From contig NC_088941.1 of the NCBI RefSeq assembly GCF_033473495.1, positions 1-64,000 of the forward strand: a stretch of DNA of 64,000 nt. Reading direction: 5' to 3'. Source of the stretch: Cercospora beticola. Its lineage: Eukaryota; Ascomycota; Dothideomycetes; Mycosphaerellales; Mycosphaerellaceae. The position numbers and the translations under genes were made by a program. The notes below the pieces were generated by a model. The model was not told where the DNA came from. It saw only the letters and a program-made list of their open reading frames with translations, and did not search any database. Numbering within the stretch: position 1 is the first letter of the stretch; each line of letters begins with the position of its first letter. Positions 1 through 59,008 of the stretch are shown piece by piece.

Positions 1-180
1 ACCCTAACCCTAACCCTAACCCTAACCCTAACCCTAACCCTAACCCTAACCCTAACCCTAACCCTAACCCTAACCCTAACCCTAACCCTAACCCTAACCC
101 TAACCCTAACCCTAACCCTAACCCTAACCCTAACCCTAACCCTAACCCTAACCCTAACCCTAACCCTAACCCTAACCCTA
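1..180. repeat. Telomere, (CCCTAA)n
   Basis: Thirty uninterrupted hexamers of CCCTAA (TTAGGG on the other strand) run from the first base, so the window begins at a physical chromosome end. The array stops abruptly at position 181 without degenerate telomere variants. TTAGGG is the usual repeat of filamentous ascomycetes. Confidence 0.98.
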
Positions 181-1345
181 AAACTAACTCTTACTACTTA
201 GAGCTTCTTTATAAACTTAAGCTTATAACCTATTAAATTATATTCTTATAAGTACTTATTAAATAGATATAATATAGTAGAAGTAGAAATAATAAGAAGG
301 AACTAACTAAGTTAATTATATTAGTTAGTTATAAGTTATATTTTACTTCTAAAATAAATATTAGCTACGTTATATAACCTAGTATTATATAACTTATATT
401 ACCTAATTCTAATCTCTAAAGTATCTCTTAGAATATCTAACTAGACTATACTTTCTAATATATATTAATATATAGTATAAGAACTTTTATAAGCTTATAT
501 TTATACTTAAGAACTTTAGAGTAGAAAAGTACTACTAGATTTATACTTAGAAGTAAAAGTATAGCTTCTATAGATATAGCTCTAAATTAAATAGTAATAA
601 AGACTTAAATTAGTATAAGCTTATATATCTAGATTATAGTTTATAGTTTAGAGCTTAATATATTTTAGAAGTATAAAATCTCTATTCGATACTATTATAA
701 GCTTAAATACTTAAATATTAGTTTTTAGCTATAGTAAGTAGATAGAGACTAGCTAATATACTATAAAATTAGTTAGAAATAGTACCGATCCGGACTTATA
801 ATTAGTACTAGTTATACTTTATACTCTAGAAACTACTTAGACTTTATAACTTCGATAGTACTTATATAGTATATTACTAGTTATATATTAACTATAGTAA
901 GACTTCTAGAACTAGACTCTTCTACTACTCGAGTATATAGTAGTATAACTATTTTATTTATACTAAACTAATATAGCGAAAGAATAACTATAATAAAGAA
1001 AGAATCTAATATTACTACTATATATTTTAGATATTTCTAGCCTCTACTAGATACTATAGTACTATAACTAAGTTAGTATATATATACGTCTATACTATAG
1101 CCGTTCGGAAATTAAGAAGTATAGACCTCGATATAGGCTAGGAGCATTTCGAGCTCTTATCTAGCTTACGTCCTTTTAGCTCCCTACCGAATATAATAGA
1201 AAGTAGACCTTCTCGCCCTATAGTACGAGTTCTCGAGGCGCCTAACCGTAGGATTATTATAAGAGTTACGCGCAGGATAGCTAGGCCCGGTACGAATAAT
1301 TAAGGTCGAAAGCTACGAATATTAAGCAGTTAGTATAGTTTTATA
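181..1345. repeat. AT-rich RIP-like subtelomeric relic
   Basis: This stretch is extremely rich in TA, TTA and CTA steps, poor in CA and TG, and has no usable open frame. That composition is the mark of repeat-induced point mutation (C to T, mainly at CpA) on an old repeat. GC content rises in steps after about 1090 and becomes ordinary near 1345. I cannot recognise the parent element; a telomere-linked helicase or a retroelement are both possible. Confidence 0.75.
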
Positions 1346-16232: not shown

Positions 16233-16637
16233 TTATAGAGAAGAGTCTGAGGTTGCGACTGTCACTAAGGTCCAACATGAAGCCCAGACTACACTTGAGT
16301 GGCTATCAAGCAGAGACAAAATATGGCCTTCCACGCGTTGATGCATTCTGAGCTGGATACTCCCGACTATTCATATGGACTTCGACTTCAACTTCATCAA
16401 GAAGCAGTGAATTCAAACGCTGACGGATCAGGCCATCGCAAATGTCAACGACATCTTGGGAGAATGATCATAGCCCACTGTGCGGAAGCATGTGGGGTCG
16501 GAAGACAGTGGGTGGTGGTCAATGTGGGCATCCGGGGGCCTGATCATCGTTCCAACATTAGACAACGGCTGAAGCAACTTTGAACTGTTTTGCTCACCTG
16601 GCAGTCTCAGCAGCACTCCCCGTGCTATTGGACAGCC
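16233..16637. other. Gene-free stretch
   Basis: A 405-base spacer upstream of the FAD monooxygenase fusion. A minus-strand open frame (16428-16811) overlaps the next gene and has no recognisable domain; I read it as a shadow. Confidence 0.45.
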
Positions 16638-18858: not shown

Positions 18859-19140
18859 TGACAGTGAAAACGCCCATTGCATATGCCCAACTTTCTGGGC
18901 CATCTAGAATAGTCGATGTCCTGCCCTTCAATGTCTTCACAATTAAAATACATCGCCTGGGCTAGGTTGGAATATGATAGCCTCGCAGGCAGCATGTCTG
19001 GGTTGACGGCAGGATCGATAGACAGATGCTACAATCCAAGGAATAGCAAATGCAATTCATCGGAGTAAAAAGCACCATGTCCAGAGGCTTTGAGCGGCCG
19101 CAATATGTGAGGTCTTTGTAGCTCAGCCAGCTTCTTCACC

Positions 19141-19987
19141 TCAATCACCGCCTCCGTGCGCCAAGTCCAAATTGCTGGGGTCTAACTCTTTTTTCTCTTC
19201 TTCTGTCAACTTGACGCCGTACTTGTCCTGTAACTTCCGCAACTTATCCGCCGATCGACATTGCCGAACGTCGGTGACGCCTGAAATGTTTTCCGTCCCG
19301 AGAGTACCATTGTTGTATCTCGGGAGCTCAATCGTGCCATCGGCATTGCAGAGAATGGCTTGACGCAGATACCAGAAACAGTGAGCAAAGTGCGGTGCTT
19401 CGGTCTGGTCGATACCGATATGTCCGCCGTAGTGTGCTCGTTGCATGGCTCTTCGCATCATGCCCAGGCAGTGCAGGCTGTGGAACCTGTTCAAAGCATG
19501 TTAGCTACGAAGCAAGGTATTCTTGTCAGTCCCGATGTGCTCACATTCCAATTAAGCCCCACTCAGTCAAGTCTGCAGGACCCAGGCTATTGTCTTTTGG
19601 CAGCCTGATGCTACCTTGCGCTGGGGCAATATCGTCTGCCCACAGATAGTCATACTTGTAGTCCAGACTCATGTACCTCGGATCACTTCCATAAGTCAAC
19701 TGCACATCGCCGATTTCACCACTTGTGGAGCGATGTGTGCCACGAAAGTATGCATCGCTGAGATTCAGAGCCACAAGAACGATAACGAAGGGTACCAAGA
19801 TCCGTAGCAGGATGTACGGGAGGACCGTCCACAGCTGTAGGATTCGTCTTCGGTGTTTTGTTTGTCCCGCAAATGGATCGATCCACTCCCCGTGTGGTGT
19901 TAACGGCGTCTCTGCACCAATCTCGAGCGAAGCCTGTGAGCGCTGTCGGAGGTGGCCGCTTTCGTGGTTCAGCTTCTGATACTCCAT
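19141..19987 (-). CDS. UstYa-family (DUF3328) oxidase-like protein
   Basis: 262 aa from two exons, 19987-19545 and 19486-19141, with a 58-nt intron (GTGAGC...AACAG) cutting just before the first motif. The N-terminal 50 residues are hydrophilic, followed by one membrane helix (about residues 55-75, LPYILLRILVPFVIVLVAL). The luminal part contains both family motifs: HSLHC and HFAHC, the latter followed by WYLRQ and C-N-A-D. These HxxHC pairs are the proposed metal site of UstYa-type enzymes, which perform oxidative cyclisation or halogenation in ribosomal peptide and other pathways. It sits next to the FAD monooxygenase fusion (convergent), about 23 kb from the RiPP precursor and the two other UstYa genes. 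Confidence 0.85.
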
Positions 19988-20634
19988 GGCGTCGACAGCA
20001 TGTTCGGAGGAACAATACTAAGAGGCGACTTCGAAGTCATAATGCGAGTCATCAATGCAGCGCTACACCTGATTGAGACCCGTTTAGGGAAGACGCTGAG
20101 CTGGAAGGCGATTTAGACAAAGAGAGCCTCGATGTTGCTCCTTTGTTACCACTCTCGCGAAACATCAGCAGGACGGAATGTCGGCTGAGAACAAAGAGCA
20201 CTGGAATGTGGGCACTCTGGCGGCAGCTCTGCGACAGAAGAGTGTTGCAAGACGAACGCCGTAGTTTTGTGCTGATAGATACTAAGCTTGCCATCCTTTG
20301 CTCGCCTGCAGGTCTTGACATATCTCTGCATCAAGGTCGCTGCGAGAACCATCCAATACGTGACTTCACCCGAGTGGGCTCAGCGGGCTCGGCAAACGTT
20401 TGTGGCGATGTCTTGGACATGGAGACCCAGCTTGCCCCATCGTCGACGGCGGGCCGCCACTTCCTTAAAAGTAGAGCCTCCGTATCCATGGCTGCGCTCA
20501 CGCACAGCACCGGTCCTCGATTCATCTCGTTGCCAATTACACTCTTCCGCGTGGGCAAGGCTCTCAACGTCCCACCTGTGCCTGAAGTCCAGTTTTCGCA
20601 TCGGCCATATTATGACACGCTTTGCAAGAGCCAT
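19988..20634. other. Gene-free stretch
   Basis: A 647-base region holding the UstYa promoter and the 3' side of the amine oxidase. Open frames across it on the plus strand are antisense extensions of the amine oxidase. No gene is supported. Confidence 0.5.
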
Positions 20635-22941
20635 TTACACAGCAGCACTTTCCCCGTTTTGACAGGCTGCAGGCTCAGATTCAGGCTGACCAAATGTTTC
20701 GATACCACTCACTCGGTCGCCATCGTAGTTGACCCTTATCCTGTTGATAGTCTGCCGACTTTGTCCAGCCGAGAACAAATCATGCGGAAGAAATTTAATA
20801 CTCGAGCGGCCGACAGAAGTAAGCGTGTTCGGAAGGTCCGAGGTTGTCGGAATGTGATGCATACCAAGGTTGAACCAAACGACAAGATCATTTTGTTCAA
20901 GCGGTTCGCCATTAAAGAACTCTTCAAAGTCCACCGGAGGGTTGTAAACATCGAAAGCATTGAGAAAGTGTGCAGACCGTGGCTCGGAGTCGTGCTGCGC
21001 TGTGACGTGGACATCGTGTTTCGCCCAGTGCACGGCATTTGCTACGACAGGGCTGTCGCTGATCGTTAGATGGGAAGCACCAGCGCCTTTGTGGATCCTC
21101 CAGCCTCTGTACTCCCCGAAGTCGTTCTTTTCGTCTTGGTTGAGCACCACAAGCATAGTTTGATCATTAGCGTCCCAATTCAGACTGCTATTATCCTCTG
21201 ATCGAACCATGGACCGTTCTAGTCGCATTGAATTCCGCTGCTCTCCTCCAGACCAGGAGTATGCCTTGACAGCCGGTGCCACCTTTGTGAGCTGAATAGT
21301 ATTCGCCCGTCCAAGGACGTCAAAATCGGCTTTGAAATTGAAAATGTGATCGTGCATGGATCCCACGAGATGGTCATGAATCCGATAGCCATAATCCTCG
21401 TTGTGAGCAGAGTGCGCGGCAAAGATAGATCCAGACGCATGAACTTCAACCTCAACAGTGCCGTCCATGGAGAAGCTGTAAGTAAACACGAAATCATAAT
21501 TGCCGACTGTGCTGCACCAGCGAATCTTCAGATGGCTGTTTCTGGTCACGGTCGTATATTGGGGAGCCGCATGCCGCTGAAGTGGCACATCAGCAGCTTG
21601 CTCAAATATGCATATGGAATTAGGCCTCGTGATCAAGTTGCCATATGTGAACATGGTCGTGTTCAGATAGGTGGCATGCGCTGGGCAATCGTAGTCGGCA
21701 ATAAGTGGCGTAGCAGAACTGCCGACGCCGTTGGTCGAGTCTAATGCAGCAAAGTTGGCCTGGTAAGGGTCGTTCCCTAATTGTGTTCGTTAGCATCTTC
21801 TAACATCTGTCCTGATCAAGCATGTATACCAGCATAGTGAGCCAATGACTCTTGTAGACTCAGCTCATACAAGACTGTAGTATTCTTGTACCGAACGTCA
21901 AACAGTCCGAGCCCAGTCTCTGCGTTGAAGCTCAAGAAGAAAGTGAATCCCATCCAAGAAAGCGAGCCTTGATCTTTATCATACAGGTATCGAGGCTCAA
22001 TCGTGCTTGAACTAATAGGTGGTGGCAGATGTTCCATGGGTAAAGGCGCTCCTTGCTGATCTGTACTCGTCCAATTTCCGTCAAAATTCATACCCAGTCT
22101 CTCGAATTCAGGTGCGAAACATGCTTCTCGTAGTTCGTCGGCCGTTGGGTAGGATTTGTCGTCGTACACCCATTGCAGGATCTCCCAGTGTTCCGAGTTT
22201 CTGTTTGTAATGTCTGCTTGAAATGACAACGCTGATGGGAGGAGCGTTCCAGAGTCGAAGCCCGTGGAGCTTTTGGCTTTGAAATTGAACCAAGTCACCA
22301 GACGGCCGTCTTTCTCTTGTCCGTAGGGATTGCTTTGTATGATCTGCAGAGTATCGTTGCCACTCCCAGTCACCACGCCCCCCAGCAAGAACAATGTCAC
22401 GTCAGCGACCGATCGCCCGATGCGATATTTCCATGCTTCGAGACTCGAGCCGATACCATAAAGGTCACGGACCTTCGCTCCTGTCTTTCGAGTTAAGGGA
22501 TACTCCAGCGGAGTAATAATCGTTCTGTCTGATATAGGAAGGGGACCGACCAACAATTCGGCAAGATATGGCCCCTCAGCGTCTTGATACCCAAGAACCG
22601 CCCGAGCATAACGCGATGGTGCGGGACGGCCGTTTTGCAAGAAATCCAAAACGTCAGATTTGTTCGGATGTTGCAATGCGATAGAGAAACTGAGGAATCC
22701 TTATTCATTAGAACTCATGGCAATCCGAGTGTCGTGCTCATATTACTGACATGCCGTTCGACGAAACACTTGGTGGTCCTGATGTGTTCAATTCTGGATC
22801 TGGCTGCTCTCGCAACCAAGAAGCGATGCTTTGCAACTCCTCCGGGCTCAATGGATTCCAAAGATTTCGTGCAGGGTATTGGGTCGAGCGTTGAGCTTGA
22901 ACCAGAGTAAGACAGCTCAAAGCATGGATAAAGTACCGCAT
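20635..22941 (-). CDS. Secreted copper amine oxidase (topaquinone type)
   Basis: Predicted 730-aa primary-amine oxidase that converts RCH2NH2 to aldehyde, H2O2 and ammonia. Three exons: 22941-22751, 22689-21830, 21776-20635; introns 61 and 53 nt. Residues 1-17 (MRYFIHALSCLTLVQAQ) form a signal peptide, so it is extracellular or vacuolar. The catalytic Asp lies in NFAALDSTNGVGS. The topaquinone precursor Tyr is in TVGNYDF. Copper ligands are HDH (in GSMHDHIFNF) and the His in WFNLGMHHIP. All key residues are present and the length fits the family. It could act on extracellular amines as a nitrogen source. Intron 1 was set by the acceptor CTCAG, which preserves the NGIFSIAL stretch. Confidence 0.9.
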
Positions 22942-39458: not shown

Positions 39459-41151
39459 TCAGGGCGAGCCATCGTTATGGTTCACCGGGCAACCAAAGTT
39501 CGATGCGAAAGGAGCCAATCTGTCCGTGATCTGGTTCAAGACACTGATTGGCAAATTGATAGCCTCACCAAAGGTCGCTGGGAAACCTGAGGCGATGGCT
39601 TGGTAGATCAAGCAAGCTGCTGCACCAGGGGCCGTGTTTACAAGAGTCCCGTTCCGAATCGCCTCTCCCGAGTTGAGTCCATTGAAGTTATTTGGGCCAA
39701 TGTTACCGCCAAAGAGGACAGGCTGTATTACCGGTCAGTCACGACACTCAACTTCAGAAACCTGAAACAACTCACATTGAGGAGATACATCTGGAGGATC
39801 TCGCTGGTGACCTCGCTATCGTAGGATTCGACTCTTGGGCGCCAGTTCGGCGGCACGCGCTCGCCACTGTTCTGGACGTAATTTCCATTGGCATCTTTCG
39901 AGATGGCGAAGAAGGACATCATGGTCTGCACTGTCGTCAGCGGGAGCCACAAGATCGGCGAAGCTGTCTCACTTACCGCCTCATCTGGAGAACCACCCTC
40001 GCCCGGGAACAGCTCGTACAGGAAGGTTGCAGCTCCATAGAGGAGCAGACTGCCTGGGCCGCTGCGAAATGTCAGCGGACACGATATCGCAAGCATGAAT
40101 TAGGACCTGGACTTACAAGAAGAAGTTGCCATTCTCCCTCATGCTCTGCTGCCAGCGCTGCTCACGATAGATGGACAGCTCTTCTCGGCCACAGTTGCCT
40201 TGGCAGGTGTCCATCATGAAACCGAAGAGCTATCGGGATTTGTCAGTATATACTGCTGATTCTTGCGCCGTGGTATACGAACCGTAGTGTTGACTCTGAA
40301 GTTGTCGTTGCCTGGTCCGGTGAAGAAGTCATTTCTGTAAGGTTATCAGCGCGAATGTCCTTTGAGTCGGATGCCAAGATTTCATAGCGTACCGGGTGAG
40401 ACTGGAGTCTGCCTCGAATTTGTTGTGCCCATTCAATCCAGGCTGGCTAGCAAGAAGACTCAAAGGAGAGCGAGTGCGAGATGTCGCATCACATCCGAGG
40501 GAAACTTTGTTGCTGATCAAATCTCCATCCTGGTCGTAGCATCAGCATAGCCTTCCGACATCTCAAAACCAGTCAACTTACAAGTCCGACACCTGCAATG
40601 GCGAGGATGTTGGCAAGTGTGAAGCCGACATTGTACATATTCTGCTGAGCGTCCACGAGCTCGGCGTCTGGAGGCACAATTAGCAACTTCGGACGGCAAG
40701 ACAAGTCCGCGCATCATACAGGTAACTATGCCGTCTCTTGCGAGGAATCCATGATTGGCTGCGGCGTTCAACTGAATGACAGTCAGTCAAAGATTGTTCT
40801 CCAAAGCATCTGGACGTGGTTCTACCAACTTACACCAGGACAAGGGCCACGAATGTCGATACCAGGGCGAGGAGCGCGGAACTCGTGCGCTGTATCGCCA
40901 GGCGCGGGCACAGGATAGCCACCTCGCTGGTTGCCTCGTGCGGGAAAGCGGGCATTATTGTAGGGAAATTGGGCTGTCAGTGGAGCGGCCGGCTCGTGAT
41001 TGGGGTTGAACGGGCAGTTTGGATCATCCCTTCGATAAGCACCACTCTTGAGGATGGAAGAGTCAACGCCGGGAGCACTTGCTACCCATGGGTAAGCAAG
41101 GACGCCTTGGATGGCGACGAGCGGAAGAACTGCGAGAGCTTTCAACGACAT
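39459..41151 (-). CDS. Secreted heme-thiolate peroxidase (chloroperoxidase/UPO-like)
   Basis: 418 aa from nine exons: 41151-40834, 40771-40720, 40667-40582, 40529-40393, 40334-40283, 40229-40117, 40061-39977, 39925-39776, 39722-39459. All introns are GT-AG, 51-62 nt, and all phases agree. Residues 1-19 are a signal peptide (MSLKALAVLPLVAIQGVLA). The heme-ligand Cys is in PCPGLNAAANHGF, split by intron 1, and the acid-base Glu in EADSSLTR, the E-x-D-x-S element of unspecific peroxygenases and chloroperoxidase. Such enzymes use H2O2 to halogenate, epoxidise or hydroxylate. It ends 1.2 kb from the RiPP precursor, so a tailoring role is possible but unproven; an independent extracellular role is equally likely. 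Confidence 0.9.
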
Positions 41152-42390
41152 TCTGAGGCTTGGATATGTGGCGACGATGCCTTCACACTCTGGCAGGCTG
41201 GTCGCAGCAATTTATATCGCAGCTGCCGGACCAGCGATATCCTGATGCCTGCCATCTTTGTATGGCAAGATACATCGTGCCTCGGGATTATATTGTCGTG
41301 CACTGGATTGGCTGGCGAGTCGCGTTGCCAAAAGCATGAAGTCGACCACGCGCAGCGCTAATATCCAAAATGGGCGCTGTCAGTCTGCTAAGGCTTTTGG
41401 GAGTATCTTGGACGTAGCCCTGAGGTCGAAAGTTGACATGTCTAGCCGGTCTGTGAGGCTAAGGGTCAGCTGGCTCCTGCACGAGCTGCGCGTCGATCGC
41501 GGAAAGCTTATACATCGCGGTGATTGAAATGATAGCTACGAGTTGTCGAGCACTTGGGCCGAGGAAGTACGGTCGCACTCTCTGCAAGTTCGAAGTCAAG
41601 AAGAGGGCTATTTTGAAATCGCATGCACACTCTGTTGTCCGCCCAGTAATCAGAGCCGACACAGCCCACGACACGCTTGCCCTTCTCGCGCGGCATGCAA
41701 ATGACCTACCTAATTCGGTAAGTGTTGCGACCAGTACTTGGCGACAGACTCATCTTGTCGAAGGGAGAGAAGGACACGATGACCATCACTGCTGCCCTGG
41801 GAATTGGCTTGGTTCTTATTGCATCGCTGCGACCAGATACAGTGTTCTCGAAGCACAATGCACACGTGTGAGCCACGTTTCCCGAGCGGCGTTTGCCTGA
41901 TTGCTCACAGGGTGAATCGCAGCTAGTCTGGCATTGGTCGTGGCCAAGACCGGCTATCGAAGCCACGCGGCCGCGGCGCTGGTCTCCATGCTTATTCAGT
42001 CTGCACGCCTTCAGTAACTGTTGCGACCAAGCTGCAGATGGCACGTTGCGCTTACTACTGAGGTGCATAGGACGGACTGGTCACCAGACGTCGATGGGCG
42101 ACGAAATGCGATGCGGCACGTGGGGACTGGAATATGCTGGACAGCTGTTGTAACCAAGAACGATTAGGCCATGGCAGGAAATGTCACGCGAACAACATCA
42201 ATTTGAAGTCTATTCAACAACCAAAGCCAAGTCCACCCATCACAGCATAACTGGCAAACAACCGAGGCAGTATACCAGCAGCCTGGTGTCACCCATTCGT
42301 AACTCGTTACCATTGCAGCTTCTTGTCCCTCATGATCACTCATACCCGGTCGATCTCGGAACAACCTTGCAAGCTTGGTCGTTCTGGTGC
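41152..42390. other. Gene-free stretch between peroxidase and RiPP precursor
   Basis: About 1.2 kb containing the peroxidase promoter and the precursor 3' side. Open frames on both strands are short and unrecognised. Confidence 0.5.
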
Positions 42391-43358
42391 TTACTCTTCG
42401 TCTCCGTGGGCCTCGCGCTTCTCCTCCTCGGCACTGACGCCGTAGACGGGGTAGAACTGCGCATCACGCTTCTCCTCTTCGCCGTTCACGCCATAAACTG
42501 GGTAGAACTGCGCATCACGCTTCTCCTCTTCGCCGTTCACGCCATAAACTGGGTAGAACTGCGCATCACGCTTCTCCTCCTCGCCGTTCACGCCATAAAC
42601 TGGGTAGAACTGGGCATCGCGCTTCTCTTCGCCATTCGCGCCATAAACTGGGTAGAACTGAGCGTCACGCTTCTCCTCTTCGCCGTTCACGCCATACACT
42701 GGGTAGAACTGCGCATCACGCTTCTCCTCGCCATTGGCACCATAGACTGGGTAGAACTGCGCGTCACGCTTCTCCTCGCCATTCGCACCATAGACCGGAT
42801 AGAATTGAGCATCACGCTTCTTCTCCTCGCCGTTGGCGCCGTAGACTGGATAGAACTGGGCATCGCGCTTCTCCTCCCCACCATTGACTCCATATACTGG
42901 GTAGAATTGGGGCTCTCTCTTCTCGTTGGAGTTGACTCCATAAACTGGGTAGAACTGAGGCTCTCTCTTCTCGTTAGAGTTGACCCCATACACCGGGTAG
43001 AACTGAGCGTCGCGCTTCTCGTTGGAGTTGACTCCATACACGGGGTAGAATTGAGCGTCTCGCTTCTCGTTCGAGTTCACGCCATACACTGGGTAGAACT
43101 GGGCATCCCGCTTCTCGTTGGAGTTCACGCCGTACACCGGGTAGAACTGGGCGTTACGCTTCTCGTTGGAGTTGACTCCGTACACGGGGTAGAACTGGCG
43201 CTTGCCAACCACCTTCACGTACTTGGCATCTGCATTTGCAACTGGTGCCTAGTGATGATCAGCTTTGCCCATTGATCCGCAATGTGGGACATGCATACAG
43301 CTCCAGCCAAGTTGGCGGCTCCAAGAGCGAGGACGGCAGCGGAGGTGGAGAACTTCAT
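42391..43358 (-). CDS. RiPP precursor: secreted, 16 Kex2-bounded QFYPVYG repeats
   Basis: 305 aa from two exons, 43358-43299 and 43248-42391; the 50-nt intron lies exactly at the end of the signal peptide (residues 1-20, ending LAGA). A short spacer ending VVGKR follows. Then come 16 tandem units of about 15-17 residues, each starting with Lys-Arg, with the core QFYPVYG identical in all 16. A final KREAHGDEE closes the protein. Kex2 in the Golgi would cut after every KR. The design is that of ustiloxin, phomopsin and asperipin (dikaritin) precursors, whose Tyr/Phe-containing cores are cyclised by UstYa-type oxidases; two such genes lie next door. I do not recognise this core. An alpha-pheromone-like precursor is the main alternative. 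Confidence 0.88.
42435..43217 (-). repeat. Tandem 45-51-bp coding repeats (RiPP cores)
   Basis: Sixteen direct repeats within the precursor gene. The N-terminal six units end VNSNE, the others end V/A-N-G-E-E(E/K) or close variants. This shows two blocks of local duplication. Core codons vary only at synonymous sites, whereas spacer residues vary in length and sequence. Confidence 0.9.
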
Positions 43359-44532
43359 TTTTGCTGTGGAAGAGGTGTGGAGAGATGTTGCGGATTGGAG
43401 TGTGAGCGTCGAAGAGAAGTTATATGCCTCTGGTCACCAGTCTTCGCGCCACTCCGCCCGCTCTTCGGCCTTCCTCCACTTTCCACGAGGCACTTGAGGT
43501 GCTCGAACTAGTTTCCACGCAATTCTGGGATCTGAGACTCGCCCACATCTCAAGCGTGGACTTTTCCTGGTATGGAAGACTGGCGGCGGTACAAGGCTCG
43601 TATCGCTTCTTGCTAGGGCAGTACTATGCCATGAAGTACCGCAATGGCTGAGCTCACATCCTCACTCGTCTGTCCAGGATGACTTTGTCTCCGCCTAGCT
43701 CTAGGACGACCGACAGCTCAGGGGACGTGCATTGGCGTCCAAAGGTGCGCATCGGAGGTGCAGGAGACATCACCATAGCTTCGCAGCCGTTCTCGAGGCG
43801 TCATCACGAATGCAGGAGCTCAGCTGTCGATACCAAAGGAAGATGCTCGGCACACAATTGGAGCGTCTCATCGTGAGACTATTGCTCGATCGAGGCCGGA
43901 AGTCGTGCTTCCTGAGAGTTGCACCACTTGACTGTACTGTGGAGCTCGACTTTCTGGTCATCTGCAACTCCGTGGCCGGCTGTTGCTCTGGACTTCGGAT
44001 CCACCGACACCTCGATTGCAAAGCGAAGATACTCCATCGATGGCATAGCAACGACGTCACCCAGAGCGGCTCTGATCTATGCCGATAGACAGACCGCTTC
44101 AACTCTCATGGACCTTGAGAAATGCCGTGCCATGTGGAGGCCCCTCGGGGTCGTGCATTTATCGTATCGTCTCTAGCATTCTGCCCGGCAGTGACGTAGA
44201 CCTTTGCATGCTCACTTGACCGATGCGTCTGGTCTTTAGTCGGCAAGTGAAGGACCTTTCTTGAAGACATGCATTAGCCTCTTCTAGGGCTCTGCGCGCC
44301 CACCTTAAGCGTGCTTATAGCTGCTGAGACAATACGGTGCAATTGTGGGGTAGGCCCGAAGACCTGGCGTATGCCCGACTTGCGCTAACGCACTAGCTTG
44401 GGACCAGTGTATCCGTCCATCGCTCGCGCAACAAACCGCGGGACCAACGTTGAATGTGCAGTTGACATTGCCGTCGCTCGTTAGTAATTGCTACTCCTCT
44501 GAGGTTTCTGCATTTACAATTCATCGTTCACC
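43359..44532. promoter_or_regulatory. Divergent spacer, RiPP precursor / UstYa gene
   Basis: A 1.17-kb intergenic region from which the precursor (minus) and the first UstYa gene (plus) are transcribed in opposite directions, a natural site for shared control. No open frame in it is recognisable, and I could not single out a regulator site. Confidence 0.45.
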
Positions 44533-45461
44533 ATGGTGGCGTTTCCGACAGTCTCAAAGCAATACGAGCGCCTTCGCCATAGCGGCGATAGTCAAGAAGC
44601 GCTTCTGGAGAAAGATGGCGAGCCACAACGGACGAGCAGATGGAGCAAAGAACGAATCATTATCGCAGTTGAGACCACTGTGATAGCGATATTATTGGCT
44701 GTGGTGGCGGTACAGAGTGTTCGAATCGGACGAGGACAAATATGGAAGCGTGGCTTTTCCACAGACTATGGTATGCTGCGCGCTTGCTCTGGTGAGATTA
44801 CTTGCTGACTGGCTTCAGGCAATATCGGAGACATCATACCCTTTAAGAAGCAAGTTTTTATCAATCCTTTGCGACCCACAGAAGACTATTCGGCTCTCAA
44901 GATGGAGTGGAAAGAGGGTGAACCACATTACACGGGCGAGCCAGGTCCGGAGATGGATGAAGCCTGGGATAAATTGTTGTCAAGTGAGTGTGCTTCTAGA
45001 CTCTATCGAAGCACTGCTGACAAATCCTCAAGTGACCACCTTCAACATCACCGGTGAGGCGGCAAAGCCAGCGATCGGTAAAACGTACTCGTATGAAGAA
45101 GGAACATACGCCATGGGTTTTGAGGTCTTCCATGCCCTGCATTGCATTAACAACATCCGAATGATGATGTATCCGGACAATTACATCTTGAGGGAGCCTC
45201 CGGAGGAGACTGAGATGCATAAAGGTATGGCAATGGAGTGATCGTTTTCCGAATTACGCTGACTCGCACTCAGCTCACTGCCTCGATTATCTGCGACAAT
45301 ATGTCCAGTGCAACGCGGACTTGACACCATTCTGGGGCGACTGGGTTCCAAAGTATCGGCTGGTACTCCGGCCGTATACACCTCACACTTGTCGAGACTT
45401 TAGCCAACTTCAGAATTGGATCACCGAGAACTCTGCAAGCACAGAGGCGCTCTCGTCGTAG
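44533..45461 (+). CDS. UstYa-family oxidase, copy A
   Basis: 260 aa from four exons: 44533-44770, 44819-44983, 45033-45224, 45274-45461; introns 48, 49 and 49 nt, phases consistent. About 43 hydrophilic residues are followed by one membrane helix (IIIAVETTVIAILLAVVAV, about 42-62), then the lumenal domain. Both family motifs are intact: HALHC (after VF) and HKAHC, the latter formed across intron 3 and followed by LDYLRQ and C-N-A-D. UstYa/UstYb-type proteins catalyse oxidative macrocyclisation of Tyr-containing RiPP cores. It is the first gene beyond the precursor's promoter and probably belongs to the same pathway. Confidence 0.87.
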
Positions 45462-46473
45462 TAGCCCATTCGCGGTTGGCCGGGTCCAGGTTGCAATGAA
45501 CACGAATTATGTCCTTCAACTCCACCTTCATCATTCCTACACTTAGGCTCTGCAGCTCTGCACCATAGCTTCACCGGCGTTGTACAGTCAGCGTGGGGCC
45601 GCGACCTGTTGCCTGAGACTAGCCTGGTCTCTGGTACTCATCGGAATCTCGTAGAATGTGGGAGCGCGATTTACCGCACTTTCAACTGTCAGGCGATGAT
45701 TAGTATAGAGCACTGCGGTCAATTGATGTCTCCACGTCTTTTCCAGCCTAAAAGACGTGCTAGATAAAGGCCGGGGAAAAAGCGGGCCACGGCCCCCGCT
45801 AAGATCCATGTCCCACATGCTTGACTGCACCGGCACATGCACATTTTTCTCACTACGAGATGCCGACTTCTTCAGCGAAACGACGGGAGTCCTACCAATG
45901 CCGGCAGTCGTCCACCGGCTGTATGTCAGACTTTTCGCTCTCAATGCCTCGAGTACGGCCGATGGCGTCCTGGATCACGATCACACAATCGGCCAACCTT
46001 GCTCGTGGTCGAGATCTGTCCGAGTGAAGCGTTGGCGGCTGGCTAGTCTTTCATGACCGCAGGGACAGCTTCTTCTCGGCCGCAACGACTGTGTGGAGCC
46101 TCCATACCGCTATTCTGCTGAGTGGAGACTACACAAGTGCATAAACGATACCCACCGGCTTCTCCATCGGACACAGACGATGGTCAGCCCTATAAGCTAT
46201 CCTGATGGCGTAGTCACAATGGAAAAACCGGATGTATCTTGAGTATGCACATCCTATGCTACCACTGTGTGAAACATGCAGCAGTCTCTCACAGTCGGGC
46301 GACGACTACTGCAACTAGTGTGTAGTTTCGACGTCGTACGTATCCACATGCACCGAGGAGCTTGTTGAGCTATGTAGCTCCCCGAGTTGAGCAGCATCGA
46401 TCAGTGTCCCATTGTCAATCGCAAACTGCTTGTCTCTCACTCCATTGTGCAGAAGGTTCGACCAACTCCCACA
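45462..46473. other. Gene-free stretch between the two UstYa genes
   Basis: About 1 kb holding the promoter of UstYa copy B. Overlapping short frames at 45588-46056 on both strands have no recognisable content. Confidence 0.5.
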
Positions 46474-47494
46474 ATGTCACGAGTCAATATCCGAGATGGT
46501 GACGGCGATGACATCGAGAAGGAACCTATGCTGGAATGGCAGTCTGTCACCAAGACACGATGGCAAAAGTACAAACGTTCGATATTGATCGTGAGCTCAA
46601 CACTTGTGCTATGCATAGCGGGGTTCACATTGCTATACCACACATTCAACAAAGATCAACCAGTACCATCTCGAACTGGTAGCAAATTGTTGGCTGGGGA
46701 AGTCAATGGCCTCGTGCCTGAATGTACGTGTCCATCGTATTACTCTCTTGAGATCCACCGCTGACAGATGTACAGTCTCAGTAACACCGCAAGTGTGGTA
46801 CAACAATTCACTCTATGGCCCAGAGGAAGACATCCGGGATCTGCCACAAGAAGAGGTGCAACAATTGATGAAGCGATGGCACGCACTTATGCCCCGTGAG
46901 TAGCACATGTTTGCGACCGAGATCACATCAACTCTGACACTTGCCAGGTGGTTATGGGTTCGTGCCTGTCCATGAACCCGAACAGTACGAATTGGCGCCG
47001 CCATTGCAATATGATGGGCTGCCGCCTCCAGACTACTACTACTCCATCACGGTCTTCCACCAACTTCACTGCTTGGTATGTAGCACCATTTCTTAGTCCA
47101 AACGAAGTGCTGACAACGCTTCAGAACGCCATCTTGAAGACCTTCGTCGAAGACCGCACGGGTTACTCAGTGGGCGGACATGCAAAACGGCAAGAGCACT
47201 TTCACCACAGCCGACATATCTTGCACTGTTTCGACTACCTCCGCCAATGTAAGACTAGAGCTTGCCTTCCAACCTTGCTTTTGCTAACACTGTCTTCCAG
47301 CTATCCAATGCTACGCTGACACTGCCCTCGAGGGAGCTGACGAATTCTCGATCGCAGAAGGAAGAGACAAAGTATTGGTCGGCACATCTGGCATTGGAAC
47401 GACGCACATGTGCAAGAATTACGATCAGATCAAGAAGTATGCGGAAGACAATGCGAACCCCAAGTGGAAGAGACCATTGGAGAAAGAACACTAG
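46474..47494 (+). CDS. UstYa-family oxidase, copy B
   Basis: 271 aa from five exons: 46474-46723, 46776-46895, 46948-47075, 47125-47248, 47301-47494; introns 49-52 nt, all phases consistent. One membrane helix (about residues 36-56, ILIVSSTLVLCIAGFTLLY) follows a hydrophilic N terminus. The motifs are HQLHC and HILHC, the second followed by FDYLRQ and, across intron 4, S-I-Q-C-Y-A-D. The start is the ATG at 46474, which gives the usual length before the helix. It differs clearly from copy A in exon number and sequence, so the pair is not a recent duplicate. Two dissimilar UstYa proteins also serve ustiloxin synthesis (UstYa and UstYb). Confidence 0.87.
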
Positions 47495-48714
47495 GATGTC
47501 TGTATTATGATGTGTTGGCCCCAGAACGTAGAGCCGAATATCAACGAGGTAATGAACCACTTCATTCTTGCGACATGATCGTTGGGCGCATTTTGCATCT
47601 GCGAGCTCCTCTTCGACGCAAAGCAGGTCGAGATACGGTTAGACGCGTTGCATGAATCTTGCATGAAGATCGCTCGTGTTTCCTGATCATCGTCTCATCT
47701 CAATTCTGATCGTCTGTCGACATCAGGATTCAGCCACATAGTCCAATCAAGCTATCCATGACCACACGCAACGGGAACAAACCAGAAATTTTCACACAGT
47801 TGCTTACAAACAGTATCCGACTACAATGTTCTGGAATCAACAGCTTCAACAGCTTCCGGCCGCGAGTACAATGCTCCGAGGAAGTCACTCATCGATTCTG
47901 ACAGCATGCGCAGTCTTCTCGGCAGATTACTGTTCCGCAATGGCCACTGAACTACTAGTCTGCTACTGCCGCTGCGAAGCCCGAGTGCTAGAGTAATGCA
48001 ATCGATCGATGATTCGTCCAAATCGACTAAGCCATGCGTTAGTAACCCTAACTAGTACTCTAGCCCGCTCCTCCACACTCCACATATACCGAGTGTTTCG
48101 AGAAAAGCCAAGCGCAATACGCGTGGGATCTAACGTCCATCCCGGCTCGTCAAGTCTTGTTTTGAGGTCTCGTGGTCTGCACAGATACGAGTAAAGTGAA
48201 GATTTTGAGGCTGGACTGCCCTTGCGTTGCACTAATTGACTTTCACGTAGGCAGCGAAATACGGCATCGATCACCGGCTTTGATGTGTGTGTCCTGCTTC
48301 TCCAATACTCGAGATGACGAACAGACGTCTGATCGATCGTACTGCTGCTCATTCTCGAGACACGGCCAACGAATTCCCCTCTCGCCAAAACGATGAGCCA
48401 CGATGATGCGTGATCATCAGATGAGGCTTCGTAGATCCTATGCTATGGCACCTGCATGTGCGCTGTACGATCTCTGGTCGTTCACCTTTCCATCTTCCAC
48501 AGCGTGAACCTGCTACATTGTCCGCCAAAATTGCAGATCGGTGGACGCAGTGTGGTTCGATTATGACCTCTGATAAACCTTCAACTAATGGCTCAAGGAT
48601 GCCAATATGCCAGGCATCGAGAGATTGAAGTGACTTTTCTTGTTTGCATCGAGTAGCATGGAAGACACTTCCCTGACATCTATCAAGATTTACGAATCTC
48701 TGCGAACCAACCCA
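47495..48714. other. Gene-free stretch
   Basis: About 1.2 kb between convergent genes. A 141-aa minus-strand frame at 47963-48388 has no recognisable domain and I do not call it. Confidence 0.45.
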
Positions 48715-50432
48715 TCAACTCTGATGGTGATACCTCTTAACAAAGTGATACCTCTCCCATCCATCCACACTATCATACGTCGTCTCCCGATCCAACGTAT
48801 ACCTCCCAATCCTCGGCAGAATCTGCACCCACACCAGGTAATACACTCCACCAGCACCAATAATTCCCCATCCAATCACCACGTGCAGCCAGTAAGGCAG
48901 CTCAAGGTAAACCGTCCTACCACCAGTCGGCGGAATAAGTGGGGCGATCACGAGATAGACATTTGCCAGGCCAAAGAAAAGAGCCACTGGCCAGGAACAC
49001 TTGAATGGTGGGTTCCATTCCCGGCGGAAGAAGTATAAGTAGACGAGACCTAGGCCGACGAAAGTGTTGACTGCGTTCAAAGGGTAGGAGACCATGTTGA
49101 GGATGAGGGAGTAGGCATCACCCGGAGGAGGAGCGAGAATGATGACTGAGGTGGTGAGCCATTGCCAGAAGAGGCCTGCGGCGGGGGCGTTGAAAGGGCG
49201 GTTCGAGGAGAAGAAGCGGTGGAAGGGAGTAATTCCTTCGCGGCCTTCGGTCGAAATGAGTCAGTACGTGTAATTCTTTGGCAGGATGGGAATGAGCTCA
49301 CCAAGTTCTTGGACAATGCGAGCTTGCGAGAACACCACACTCAACACGTTGCCAAAGGCTGACAGCGCGACGAAGACAGAGAGTGCTCGTGCTGCTGGGC
49401 CGCCCATGACATTGCGGAAGAAGTTTGCGGAGACCGCACTGCCGCTGGTGAGCAGCTGTTCGCGAGGTACACCGGCGAAGTAGGCGATGTTGCAGAACTA
49501 GAAGAAGGTGTCAGAAATGATTTCCAGCTTAATATTGCCGAGACGTACCATGTAAATGATAGAGATGCCCGCCAAAGCCGTAGGCGCAGCAATCTTCAAT
49601 GTTTTGACAGGGTCTTTGGTCTCCCGAAGTGCGTAGTTGGCATTAGAGTAGCCAATGAAGGACCAAATAACAGAGTAAAGTGCTGCAACGATTGCATTGG
49701 CATCGCTGGTAGTTCCGGCAAAAGCATTGGTAAAGTTGTCCGGCTTTGTCTCCAACTTTGTGACTCCAGCGAGTGCTGCCCATCCTGCAATGACAATGAT
49801 GAGAACGATCAGCACCTTGATGAAGCCCAGGGCGTTCTGGAGTTTGAGCCCCAGCTTGACATTCGTGGCGTGGATAGCGCATGCTGTAGTCACGCAGGCC
49901 ATGGCAATGCCTCTTTGATTCCAGCGAGTAACCTCAACTTCAGCTGCGAGAAGGATGTATTGCCCAAAGATGACGGAGTTACCACCTGCCCAGCCAAGCA
50001 GCATGATGTAGGGAGTGTAGAAAGCTGTGGCGATGAATTTGGGGTGTCGGTAAATGTATTCGAGGTAGTTCTTCTCTCCGCCGTTCCTGAAATTGGTCAG
50101 CAGTAGCTCAAGCGCAAGGGTGCAGAGTCTCACTTGGGGATGCCTGTGCCAAACTCGAGATATACTGCCATACCAGCACTCGCAATGCAGATGCCAATCA
50201 CCCACAACATGAGAGCCATTCCTGTCGAGCCTGCAAGTCTGTAGATCGTGGCTGGAGTCGCAAAAATACCAGTACCGACGACGCGGTTGAAGATCAGGAA
50301 AGCTGCTGAGAAGGTGCCGATAGTTCGCTTTTCATCTTGAAGTCTTTCAACCTCAGAAGGAGTGCTGCTCTGAGAGATCTCATCAGTTCGCTCGCTGCCA
50401 TTGTAGGCGTGCGCATCGTATTTTTCCGACAT
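48715..50432 (-). CDS. Amino-acid permease, APC family (Mup1-like)
   Basis: 520 aa from four exons: 50432-50134, 50086-49549, 49497-49302, 49244-48715; introns 47, 51 and 57 nt. About 12 membrane segments are visible. The first carries FNRVVGTGIFATP, the unwound TM1 of APC transporters that contacts the substrate amino group. A long middle portion includes IWSFIGYSNANYALRETKDP. This matches fungal high-affinity methionine permease-like proteins, plasma membrane. It borders the RiPP block, and dikaritin clusters often include a transporter, but an amino-acid importer of general use is just as likely. Confidence 0.87.
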
Positions 50433-55353: not shown

Positions 55354-56145
55354 TCAAGCTTGAGACTTCCCCCAGTGCGGGTTCTCCGCGGATTCGTCAT
55401 GAGTATTCTTCCAATATGGATTCTCATTCGCAGTCTCGTTCTCGGCACGCTTGTCGGCGAGACTCACAGGTCCACTTGCCTCCTTCCAATATGGGTTCTG
55501 TTTGGAGCCCGCATGCGTGTCATTCCAGTACCGATTACCGGTTTTACCACCATCCTCTCGCGAAATGAGCATTACCGGGGGCGACTTCCAATATGGGTTC
55601 TCCGTGGAGCCCGCGTGTGTATCATTCCAGTAGCGATTTCCAGCCTTACCGCCATCGTTTCGCGAAATGGGCATCACAGGAGGCGACTTCCAGTACGGAT
55701 TTTCCTTCGAGCCAGCATGTGTATCATTCCAATAACCATTGCCAGTCTCATTGCTTTCCCCTCGCGGAATGAGAACCACGGGCGGTGATTTCCAGTATGG
55801 ATTCTCTTCCGAGTCAGCATGTGTATCATTCCAGTATCGAGTGTCCGAAGACGAATTCGCCTTGTCCTCCTCACGTGTGATCAGAATCATAGGTTTGTTT
55901 CCAGATTTCCAGTACGGATTGCCTTTCAATCCTTCGTGCGTATTGTTCCAGTAGGGATTGGAAGACGCAGTTTTGTCGTCATCGGAACGAGTGACGAGCA
56001 CGACTGGTTGACTGGCAGCCTTCCAGTATGGATTCTCCTTTGATCCAATATGAGTATTGTTCCAGTACGTGTTGTTTCGCCAATAAGGAGCAGCAAAAAC
56101 GCTGATGGCGCTCGTGCTGAGCAATGTGAAGGTTGTGAACTTCAT
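55354..56145 (-). CDS. Secreted tandem-repeat protein rich in YWN-T sequons
   Basis: Intronless, 263 aa. Residues 1-18 are a signal peptide (MKFTTFTLLSTSAISVFA). The rest is seven imperfect units of about 34-39 residues. Each has the consensus YWN(N/D)TH-x-G-S-x-E-NPYWK, and the central ones add PPV(M/V)LI(S/P)R followed by an Asp/Gly-rich spacer. Every unit carries an N-x-T glycosylation sequon at YWN-x-T. Trp and Tyr are strikingly frequent and there are no Cys. Only one KR dibasic site is present, near the C terminus, so a Kex2-processed precursor is less likely than a glycosylated wall or matrix protein. I recognise no family. A damaged paralog lies at 58545-59008. Confidence 0.75.
   Translation of the reverse strand: MKFTTFTLLSTSAISVFAAPYWRNNTYWNNTHIGSKENPYWKAASQPVVLVTRSDDDKTASSNPYWNNTHEGLKGNPYWKSGNKPMILITREEDKANSSSDTRYWNDTHADSEENPYWKSPPVVLIPRGESNETGNGYWNDTHAGSKENPYWKSPPVMPISRNDGGKAGNRYWNDTHAGSTENPYWKSPPVMLISREDGGKTGNRYWNDTHAGSKQNPYWKEASGPVSLADKRAENETANENPYWKNTHDESAENPHWGKSQA
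55390..56085 (-). repeat. Tandem ~102-bp coding repeats
   Basis: Direct repeats underlying the seven protein units of the secreted repeat protein. The three central units are nearly identical at the protein level; the outer units are more diverged, as expected from unequal exchange in the middle of the array. Confidence 0.8.
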
Positions 56146-58544
56146 GGTTGATGATCGAAGGGAGTGTTGGTATGTTGCGGTCGACCTGCGACGCACTGGA
56201 TAAGACTGAGAAGTGAAAGTGGCCTTGACTGACTTGAAGTGGAAGCAGTCGAGCTCGTATTCGAGCTATATACCCTTTCCACGTTTCGACGACGCATTCT
56301 ACACTATGCAGAGATGAGCCACTCGAAACAGATCTGAAGTCTCCGACTGCATTTCGGTGTCTCTATTTGCTCTTCCTGAATGGACTACGTCCTATAATGT
56401 CTCATTGTGCCTATCAGAACACCACGTCGAAAAGACCGATATGAGGTCTATCGCAGCGCATAGACAATTGAGCGGTAGGACGTTACCACACCATTGGCAT
56501 CTATCCCAGAGATCACACAAAGCTGGCCCGCTAGGCTGATCGTCCAGAAGCAGAGTCCTACAGTTCGGAGAGATGCTATCTACTTTGATGTCACCTAGCT
56601 TCCAGGATCAGCTTCTGCTCCCAATGATGATTGCCAAACAGCACACGCATGTTTTGATTGGGTTGATGGGATCGCACCGGCATTGTCTTCTGCGCACGCT
56701 ATGAAATCATGTCTTGCAGAGTTCGGAACATTCCGATACCAACCGTAGTCCACTGATGCCCGTCTACGAAACTCCTGCTCACTCAACATGGGCTTGAGAT
56801 GTCAAATAGCGTTTAATGCCTTACAAGATGCCCACCATCGTTGAATGACAATTGTTTGTGGCACTTCTCAGAGCCCCATAAACCATGTGTCCATTTGACC
56901 CCTAATCATTGGCCTGTCGAAAAGGACCGATCAACAAAACTCTCAAAAGTCCGAACGCAAGCATCTACGGTTCCGTCATTGGTGTTAACTAGTTGTCGTG
57001 CTTCGGGAGGACACTCGCGGTGACCTTTCGGCCAAATGTCCGAGCACTAAAGAACCTGGCCTCCAGTGTCACAGATAGTCAAGACAGTTACGGTTCCCCA
57101 GCCACGTGTAGGTACACCTTGGTTCCATAGGACACACTCTCACATCGACGGGCTTGCAGCAGTAGGAATTTTGTGGTCTCACACATGCTTCGTAGCGTAG
57201 AAGAATGAGCGCACGGTTGTTTATTGCTTTGTATAGGTTTTGTTCGACTCGGATTTATTGTTCTGTTCAAAGTCTTACCTGACGTGCACGATCGTATTCT
57301 TCGCAGCCACGAGTCGCATTTGCAGACGTTGTATGCTGCCAGTGTTTCGCTAGCTGTTAATACCCGTCTAGGCATACGATGATAAGTCTCATATAATCAA
57401 TTTGTGGCGGCTGAACGCTTGTGAAATGATCGAGCAGTCCTCTGTATTAGAAACCTTTGCGAACCAGCATTTTCTGAAACTAGTAAGCGATTCTTCAAAA
57501 CTATGCCTTTCGTCTCGCCCGCCAGCATAGAATTCAAAGAGCAAAGTGTCTAAGCGAACCACCACATAATGTGAGAGGCTACTAAACGAGTCCTGTTAGT
57601 TGAATCATCATAGATATAAAATATCGGCTACTAAGCTGGCTTAGTCTCTAGATCAGGCTAGGACAGAAGTCGTCCAGCAAGCAATATCCCGGTGTTTTCA
57701 GGAGAGCTTATAGGACGAAGCGACCCTTGCATATGTTCCAAGAGCCAAAGCCCAGGGGACGACACTAATGTAGCGGGACTTTCCATGTCCTTGACGTAGC
57801 TTTATAGGTCCCTGAAGTACTACATGTATGCAGTGGAAACAAGCTACCAGTCATTGCTTGTCTTGTCTTTGCTATCCGCAGGGAGCTCTTACGCCAACAA
57901 GACATGGTCAGACTCTTAACTGCTCAACCTATTCGCTGGATTGATCGAATGTCGGCAAGACACCGATTCTTATCGATGTAGGCAGGATTTGCGCATCCTC
58001 TACACCAAGTTCGACCCACGATCTTGTCGCACTCAGTGCGAGGTGCGGCCATTCGAATGTGGAAATCATCTAGCAGGCCTATGCTCCAGTAGATAGAGTC
58101 CCCGGCCGCGTTTCTGAACGAACAATGTCGGTCCGATGTTGTGCCTTGGGATTGATTTAATGGCATTTTAGAATTTCGTCATATCTGTGAACTGGGCGGA
58201 GTTCTACCTATTGTACATCAACCACATCCTGCCCAGAGATTTCATGCTTTCTCCAAGCCATTTTTCTACCGACAGCTTGTCTATGAACGTAGCGTAGGAA
58301 TGTCCTGGCTCGAGAACAACGAATAGCAACTTTCGACAGGAATCAGTCAACTTCCTCGTCTGTCCAACACATACATCGTCGCATTAGCAACATCTATCAT
58401 TATACACAACCGCGCCGAACCGTCGCTATTCCAAACTCATGCGCCTTCTTCTCCTTGCTTCATGAAGCGCACTGCGTCTCTCCACCAACATCACTCCCCC
58501 GTCAACCAATCATATCATCCCTCATTCCACAACAACGCTTCCCT
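56146..58544. other. Longest gene-free stretch (2.4 kb)
   Basis: Open frames are few and short on both strands, and base composition is a little AT-richer than in the gene blocks. I see no transposase, reverse transcriptase, terminal repeat or RNA gene. It separates the two related repeat-protein genes. Confidence 0.5.
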
Positions 58545-59008
58545 CTAGAAACGTTCTCGCGTAGCATTCGTCACAGTCCCATTCCACAGCGAGCCATGTC
58601 CGTGTCCGCCACCGCTTCGCCTCTCAAACTTCAAACTCGGTTTCTTCGTCGCTTTCCAGAACGAAGTCCCATCTGAGCCAGCACGCGTATCGTTCCAGAA
58701 CGGGTTGCCAGTTCCATTGCCATCATGTCGAGCAAACAAAAGAAAGAAGGAGAGGTAGAGTTCCAAGGCCCTCCGTTTGTGTTGTTCCAGTGCCCGGAAG
58801 CATGCTTATTCTTATCGTTGGAGCGAGTGAAGAGCATTACTGGTTTCAGCGCAGGGTCTGCTTGTGGGTTGCCATTGGTGCTGTTCCAGTCGGTGGTGGT
58901 GTTTGAGTGAGAAGTTTCGTTCGAGTGGCGTTCATGAAGGTTCTGGTAAGGAGCAGCAGAGACGCTGACAGCGCTCAAGCCCAAAAAGGCGACGATGCTG
59001 ATCTTCAT
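58545..59008 (-). pseudogene. Frameshifted paralog of the secreted repeat protein
   Basis: Starts MKISIVAFLGLSAVSVSA, a signal peptide. Units of the same style follow: DWNSTNG, LKPVMLFTRS, GHWNNTNG, and NPFWNDTRAGS, which matches YWNDTHAGS of the gene at 55354-56145. The first frame is open to 58631, but family similarity switches frame between about 58766 and 58735, in a CTTCTTTCTTTTG run. The second frame reads FLLFARHDG onward and ends at 58545. A single-base loss in that run explains it. N-x-T sequons are abundant in both frames' conserved parts. Either a recent pseudogene or a homopolymer error. Confidence 0.65.

What the first reader, a model, noticed from the sequence alone, without database searches (positions are those of the whole stretch)
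39459..50432. Candidate dikaritin-type RiPP cluster with an unfamiliar core peptide
Seen: a signal-peptide precursor with 16 KR-bounded copies of QFYPVYG lies next to two distinct genes that each carry both HxxHC motifs of the UstYa family, flanked by a heme-thiolate peroxidase and an APC permease. Known: in ustiloxin, phomopsin and asperipin biosynthesis, Kex2-cut repeats with Tyr/Phe cores are oxidatively cyclised by UstYa-type proteins. Inferred: this locus makes a cyclic peptide from QFYPVYG, with the two Tyr and the Phe as likely cross-link sites. I do not recognise the core from any characterised product.
Basis: partly seen in the sequence, partly recalled or inferred. Interest (0 to 1): 0.92.

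Follow-up and report, generated by a model that had tools for sequence, protein, structure and literature searches.

The report
Fungal cyclic-peptide gene cluster, unknown product
A leaf-spot fungus carries a gene encoding sixteen copies of one short tyrosine-rich peptide, beside two genes for copper enzymes that probably cross-link it; the peptide is not one we found described, but the kind of system is known and common in fungi.

Summary
A spliced gene (43358..42391, minus) encodes a 305-residue secretory-type protein with 16 copies of QFYPVYG in Kex2-type (KR) units. Two UstYa/DUF3328 genes lie beside it (44533-45461, 46474-47494, plus), each with both HxxHC motifs. All codon differences among the cores are synonymous. 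A homologous precursor with the same core exists in Pseudocercospora eumusae, whose UstYa-B orthologue lists a contig of the same length. Septoria linicola's UstYa-A and -B share one contig length. The host is Cercospora beticola or a very close relative.

Best reading: a UstYa-type fungal RiPP locus (dikaritin in the broad, DUF3328-defined sense) making an unknown, probably cross-linked peptide; nearest architecture asperipin-2a. No tyrosinase or S41 peptidase lies near, so the strict five-gene dikaritin definition is not met. Membership of peroxidase and permease is unproven.

Two points are added. An X-Ala/X-Pro dipeptide follows KR in 15 of 16 units (a Ste13 signature, usual in alpha-pheromones); with P. 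eumusae this points to Gln as mature N-terminus. Tyr3-Pro4-Val5 has the Tyr-x-(beta-branched) spacing cross-linked in ustiloxins and phomopsins. Product and function are untested.

The parts
42391..43358 (-). Precursor (Kex2-processed repeat protein), 305 aa, intron 43249-43298, 16 copies of QFYPVYG
   Evidence: homologue P0001 E=1.8e-33
42435..43197 (-). Tandem repeat array (48/99-nt periods) encoding the cores and linkers
44533..45461 (+). UstYa-A (DUF3328), exons 44533-44770, 44819-44983, 45033-45224, 45274-45461, 260 aa, HxxHC at 168 and 197
   Evidence: (P0003, Cercospora beticola, 259 of 260 residues identical)
46474..47494 (+). UstYa-B (DUF3328), exons 46474-46723, 46776-46895, 46948-47075, 47125-47248, 47301-47494, 271 aa, HxxHC at 161 and 197
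   Evidence: (P0021, C. berteroae, 97%)
43359..44532 (.). 1,174-bp divergent intergenic region between precursor and UstYa-A, a possible shared promoter
   Evidence: gene coordinates; sharing is inference
39459..41151 (-). Heme-thiolate peroxidase (family 2), 9 exons, 418 aa; membership of the cluster unproven
   Evidence: PF01328 6.4e-44
48715..50432 (-). APC-type amino acid permease; membership of the cluster unproven, exon limits not refined
   Evidence: PF13520 in three ORFs

Best explanation
The locus is a UstYa (DUF3328)-type fungal RiPP cluster. The precursor enters the secretory pathway by its signal peptide (inferred from sequence). The two membrane-anchored UstYa copper oxidases act in the lumen on the QFYPVYG cores, most likely forming one or two ether cross-links from a Tyr phenol oxygen to the beta-carbon of another core residue. 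The best-precedented site is Tyr3 to Val5 (i to i+2), with Tyr6 to Phe2 as an alternative (inferred). Kex2 cuts after KR. A Ste13-type dipeptidyl aminopeptidase removes the X-Ala/X-Pro dipeptide, leaving N-terminal Gln, which may become pyroglutamate. Carboxypeptidases trim the tail (inferred). The released peptide is exported as a small extracellular compound of unknown activity. Everything chemical is inferred.
For: 16 identical cores with 12 distinct nucleotide encodings and at least 11 codon changes, all synonymous (350 synonymous and 0 non-synonymous differing pairs), while the four codons after the core show 121 synonymous and 201 non-synonymous. P. eumusae precursor AC578_2971 has an alignable leader, 4 intact QFYPVYG, one QFYPVDG and one truncated copy, each directly after KR. 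P. eumusae UstYa-B AC578_2986 (53%) lists a contig of the same length, 211,020 nt. S. linicola UstYa-A (77%) and UstYa-B (72%) both list a contig of 1,954,546 nt. All six HxxHC ligands, plus two further Cys, are invariant in 16 aligned proteins (the two window proteins and 14 of the 54 hits). AlphaFold2 of P0003 puts a TM-like helix at 39-67 and one HxxHC on each of helices 165-179 and 191-212, the arrangement reported for the binuclear copper enzyme CctR (abstract and passages of PMC12435403). One Kex2-type and several DPPIV-type matches exist in the genome. Two further UstYa loci of the same genome also carry Tyr-containing dibasic-bounded repeat precursors.
Against: No expression or mass data. 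No tyrosinase or S41 peptidase near, whereas ustiloxin- and phomopsin-type cyclisation needs a tyrosinase (passages of PMC7329392); asperipin-2a has none in its four-gene cluster (passages of PMC6514808). No P. eumusae UstYa-A was returned. AC578_2971 and AC578_2986 are 15 tag numbers apart, so linkage there may be loose, and a second P. eumusae relative of UstYa-B (AC578_7071, 48% over 63%) lists a contig of another length, 140,085 nt. The X-A/X-P signature is typical of linear alpha-pheromones (passages of PMC6339444).
Confidence: 0.8

Rival explanations
1. A linear, pheromone-like signalling peptide: Kex2, Ste13 and Kex1 release unmodified (perhaps pyroglutamyl) QFYPVYG peptides, and the two UstYa enzymes next door serve another substrate.
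For: X-A/X-P dipeptide after KR in 15 of 16 units, a signature said to be generally confined to alpha-pheromones in Ascomycota (passages of PMC6339444). UstYa genes are common here: 63 exon matches.
Against: Two UstYa genes within about 4 kb of the precursor; contig-length linkage of B with the precursor in P. eumusae and of A with B in S. linicola. No Pfam pheromone match for the repeat ORF. Pheromone-type KEP genes are almost never beside DUF3328 genes (passages of PMC7329392). Tyr-rich core.
Confidence: 0.12
2. UstYa-modified but not cyclised: the enzymes hydroxylate, halogenate or otherwise oxidise the core rather than forming a ring.
For: The family is reported to do halogenation, hydroxylation and other reactions besides macrocyclisation (passages of PMC12435403).
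Against: The three characterised products from Tyr-containing Kex2-repeat precursors named in the passages seen are ethers (PMC7329392).
Confidence: 0.07

Closest known systems
Asperipin-2a cluster (Aspergillus flavus)
   Same: Kex2-repeat precursor, UstYa-type oxidase, no tyrosinase in its four-gene cluster; a core starting F-Y and ending in Tyr, with ethers from Tyr side chains to beta-carbons (passages of PMC6514808).
   Different: One UstYa homologue there and two here; a reductase and a transporter there, none of that kind recognised here (an amino acid permease lies near); core length and sequence differ; X-A/X-P spacers here (not compared with the asperipin precursor, whose full sequence I did not see).
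Ustiloxin and phomopsin clusters (dikaritins in the strict sense)
   Same: Repeat precursor plus two or more DUF3328 genes; Tyr-x-(beta-branched) spacing (passages of PMC7329392).
   Different: No tyrosinase or S41 peptidase here; the core is otherwise unlike.
Alpha-pheromone precursors of ascomycetes
   Same: Signal peptide, repeats, KR followed by X-A/X-P dipeptides (passages of PMC6339444).
   Different: No Pfam pheromone match; beside UstYa genes.
CctR, copper-dependent DUF3328 hydroxylase
   Same: HxxHC(x)nHxxHC, N-terminal TM helix, one motif on each of two helices.
   Different: CctR hydroxylates a cyclic peptide, cyclochlorotine; here a ribosomal precursor is the presumed substrate.

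Membership tests
Kex2-processed repeat protein (KEP) | Signal peptide followed by repeats separated by KR/RR/KK | tested here: met
   the signal peptide was judged by eye, no predictor run
Dikaritin, broad sense (DUF3328 as class-defining enzyme, as cited in PMC12048977, passages) | DUF3328 gene beside a repeat precursor gene | tested here: met
Dikaritin, strict five-gene sense (cited in PMC12048977, passages) | Tyrosinase in the cluster | tested here: not met
   25 PF00264 matches in the genome, none on contig C7
Dikaritin, strict five-gene sense | Methyltransferase in the cluster | tested here: inconclusive
   none among Pfam scans of all 34 stop-to-stop ORFs of 100 aa or more that one search lists between 38.2 and 50.6 kb; shorter exons were not scanned and no genome search for methyltransferases was made
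Dikaritin, strict five-gene sense | Transporter or peptidase | tested here: inconclusive
   APC permease present but unproven; the two S41 matches of the genome lie on C2 and C3
Dikaritin, either sense | Oxidatively cross-linked peptide product | not testable with these tools
   needs LC-MS/MS
UstYa/DUF3328 copper oxidase | HxxHC(x)nHxxHC and a membrane helix | tested here: met
   motifs in both; helices in A, modelled through P0003 (mean pLDDT 71.9, pTM 0.57); B was not modelled; copper binding not testable
Ascomycete alpha-pheromone | Ste13 X-A/X-P signature after KR | tested here: met
   15 of 16 units, also after the last KR; 0 of 6 copies in P. eumusae
Ascomycete alpha-pheromone | Pheromone domain | tested here: not met
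   no pheromone family for the repeat ORF at E 0.1; similarity to pheromone peptides was not searched

The most novel reading that the evidence does not exclude
A UstYa-cross-linked peptide that borrows the mating-pheromone maturation route (Kex2, then Ste13-type trimming, then Kex1) and is kept by Cercospora and Pseudocercospora leaf pathogens as an extracellular signal or host-directed compound. It would be an intermediate between linear pheromones and cyclic dikaritins, with X-A/X-P spacers in Cercospora and none in Pseudocercospora.
Probability: 0.13. Interest if true: 0.65.

Novelty: new member of a known kind. Interest (0 to 1): 0.45.

Why it matters
It names a concrete, testable peptide: core letters, N-terminus and expected masses. 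The core was not found in the paper library, and no annotated Cercospora precursor was returned (a capped candidate list), so the gene may be missed by automatic annotation. Cyclic peptides of this kind include a known host-selective toxin (victorin) and are proposed as fungal effectors (passages of PMC9632046). Clusters of this kind are numerous, however: 1758 of 7878 repeat precursors had a DUF3328 gene within 15 genes in a 2020 survey (passages of PMC7329392).

Tried and rejected
Rejected: Pfam matches of the repeat ORF to Connexin50 (above its cut-off, 26.1 against 25 bits), FolB and SAP25, taken as repeat artefacts. Rejected: P0002 (E 0.039, PF01420), sharing a short word with the repeat. 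Rejected: L011 on C8, a match at E 0.6. Sub-threshold Pfam matches of gap ORFs (Conotoxin_I2, CX, HV_small_capsid, Mhr1, DUF501; E 0.013 to 0.1, all below cut-off) were set aside. Led nowhere: PDB sequence search with UstYa-A (best E 0.52); Foldseek of the UstYa-A model against PDB (0 of 82 matches at E 0.001 or better); single-sequence AlphaFold2 (pLDDT 38.4), which I should have run with an alignment at once.

Paper searches. Core (FYPVYG, YPVYG, FYPIYG, FYPVY): one lubricin work, held twice. Cercospora with UstYa: 2 papers; Cercospora with Kex2 and repeat: 4; these six were seen as listings only. Cercospora beticola with RiPP terms: 15 listed of 1,653, of which two were opened at passages for this question; one counts a single fungal-RiPP cluster in C. 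kikuchii without details in the passages seen (PMC8496228). None of the titles or passages seen describes this locus; supplements could not be read.

The script is crude and misses intron-split genes.

A correction to my own notes: an earlier count said 5 intact cores in P. eumusae; the count is 4 intact, 1 altered, 1 truncated.
Full report
WHAT IS THERE. The window is the telomeric start of contig C7 (3,002,656 nt) of a 36.07-Mb, 10-contig fungal genome. UstYa-A differs at one of 260 residues from a Cercospora beticola protein, so the host is C. beticola or a very close relative. On the minus strand at 43358..42391 a two-exon gene encodes a 305-residue protein: a signal-peptide-like start, a short pro-region, then 16 identical QFYPVYG cores separated by mostly acidic linkers and KR. 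In the genome search with it (E up to 1) the other matches are its own first exon and one at E 0.6. Divergently, 1,174 bp away, lies UstYa-A (44533-45461), followed by UstYa-B (46474-47494), both with complete spliced models. Pfam UstYa scores are 127.9 bits (P0003, for A) and 112.7 bits (B) against a cut-off of 25. A family-2 peroxidase (41151..39459; 6.4e-44) and an APC permease (about 50432..48715) flank them. Beyond lie HET-domain and AMMECR1 matches. All 34 stop-to-stop ORFs of 100 aa or more listed between 38.2 and 50.6 kb were scanned; only the HET, UstYa and permease ORFs, and the repeat ORF with its artefact Connexin50, reached a Pfam cut-off. The peroxidase passes its cut-off only as the spliced model.

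THE CORE IS UNDER SELECTION. The 16 cores use 12 different 21-nt sequences. At least 11 codon changes are needed across the seven columns and none changes a residue, although 79% of random single changes would. In the four codons that follow, 201 of 322 differing pairs are non-synonymous. Copies of a repeat are not independent, so I give no P value.

RELATIVES. A search of 5.8 billion proteins, in which only the 7,998 candidates sharing most words were scored, gave two proteins at E up to 1: one true precursor homologue, Pseudocercospora eumusae AC578_2971 (E 1.8e-33), and one chance match. The homologue has an alignable leader, four intact QFYPVYG, one QFYPVDG and one truncated copy, all directly after KR, then an unlike tail. 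P. eumusae UstYa-B (AC578_2986, 53%) lists a contig of the same length, 211,020 nt; a second, weaker relative (AC578_7071) lists another, 140,085 nt. Septoria linicola has A (77%) and B (72%), both listing a contig of 1,954,546 nt. These are linkage inferences from contig length; I could not fetch the contigs. Against: the two P. eumusae tags are 15 apart, and no protein named as P. eumusae was among the 18 hits of UstYa-A. No precursor was returned from Septoria, P. musae, P. fuligena or any Cercospora.

PROCESSING. In 15 of 16 units KR is followed by NA, DA or EP, and the last KR by EA; the first copy has none. X-Ala/X-Pro after KR is the Ste13 signature of alpha-pheromones, said to be generally confined to them in Ascomycota (passages of PMC6339444). 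A partial precedent weakens its oddity: of 76 KEPs resembling Ste13-type basidiomycete candidates, 17 had a DUF3328 gene near (passages of PMC7329392). Because P. eumusae puts Gln directly after KR and the first Cercospora copy does too, both routes give the same N-terminus, Gln. The genome holds one Kex2-type P-domain match and five DPPIV_N matches, two of them strong.

ENZYMES. CctR, a DUF3328 protein, was shown in 2025 to be a dimeric, binuclear copper enzyme using HxxHC(x)nHxxHC, with a TM helix (abstract and passages of PMC12435403). All six ligands are invariant in the 16 proteins I aligned, the two of the window and 14 of the 54 hits; in a wider set of 39 of the 54, fragments included, no column is invariant but the six are at 90% or more. 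The AlphaFold2 model of P0003, standing for UstYa-A (39 sequences, mean pLDDT 71.9, pTM 0.57), has a helix at 39-67 and one HxxHC on each of helices 165-179 and 191-212, as reported for CctR. No solved relative was found by sequence or by fold.

CHEMISTRY (INFERENCE). In ustiloxins and phomopsins a Tyr is joined to an Ile two residues on, and in asperipin-2a Tyr side chains are joined to beta-carbons (passages of PMC7329392, and PMC6514808). QFYPVYG offers Tyr3 with Val5 two residues on, and Tyr6 with Phe2. I rank Tyr3-Val5 first; this is not tested. With no tyrosinase or S41 peptidase near, asperipin-2a is the nearest architecture.

MEMBERSHIP AND NOVELTY. It meets the broad definition (DUF3328 as the class-defining enzyme) and fails the tyrosinase item of the strict five-gene one (both as cited in PMC12048977, passages). 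I file it as a new member of a known kind: UstYa-type fungal RiPPs, of which 1758 precursor candidates were counted in 2020 (passages of PMC7329392). In the same genome two other UstYa loci, of 19 examined out of 34, also have repeat precursors, at C9 near 90.5 kb and 621 kb. The core was not found in the paper library. The unusual point is the pheromone-type spacer in a UstYa-linked ascomycete precursor.

FUNCTION. Unknown. Dikaritins include the host-selective toxin victorin and are proposed as effectors or antimicrobials (passages of PMC9632046). Three deletions elsewhere (epichloecyclin precursor, ustiloxin cluster, asperipin precursor) are reported to have given no visible phenotype (passages of PMC7329392). 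I would not assume virulence.

Noticed in passing
window 55354-56265 (-): Secretory-looking ORF with a 102-nt tandem repeat (units like YWNDTHAGSKENPYWK, single Arg sites), about 8 kb from UstYa-B; one weak paralogue piece at 58542-58739 (38% identity), no other match in the genome at E 0.001. Possibly a second repeat-peptide precursor.
   Followed up: partly
window 14677-22700: A further UstYa gene (ORFs 19141-19500 and 19541-20017, minus; Pfam match at 19234-19494) among what look by eye like an MFS transporter, an FAD monooxygenase and a copper amine oxidase; probably a separate biosynthetic cluster.
   Followed up: no
L003 571-975 (+), genome C9 near 621 kb: Repeat precursor with KR-bounded units like EVPYEVGLTYADYGREG beside a UstYa gene.
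   Followed up: partly
L032 8530-9030 (-), genome C9 near 90.5 kb: Small secretory-looking precursor with DVAKPDYQYLV units bounded by KK/RK beside a UstYa gene.
   Followed up: partly
window 39459-41151 (-): The peroxidase carries PCP but EAD where I recall EGD or EHD in characterised family-2 peroxidases (motifs from memory).
   Followed up: no
window 1-181: Thirty copies of ACCCTA: the window starts at a telomere, so the locus is subtelomeric, about 40 kb in.
   Followed up: no
P0001 (Pseudocercospora eumusae AC578_2971): The last repeats are altered or truncated and the tail reads unlike the rest, so the annotated gene may be mis-modelled or decaying.
   Followed up: no
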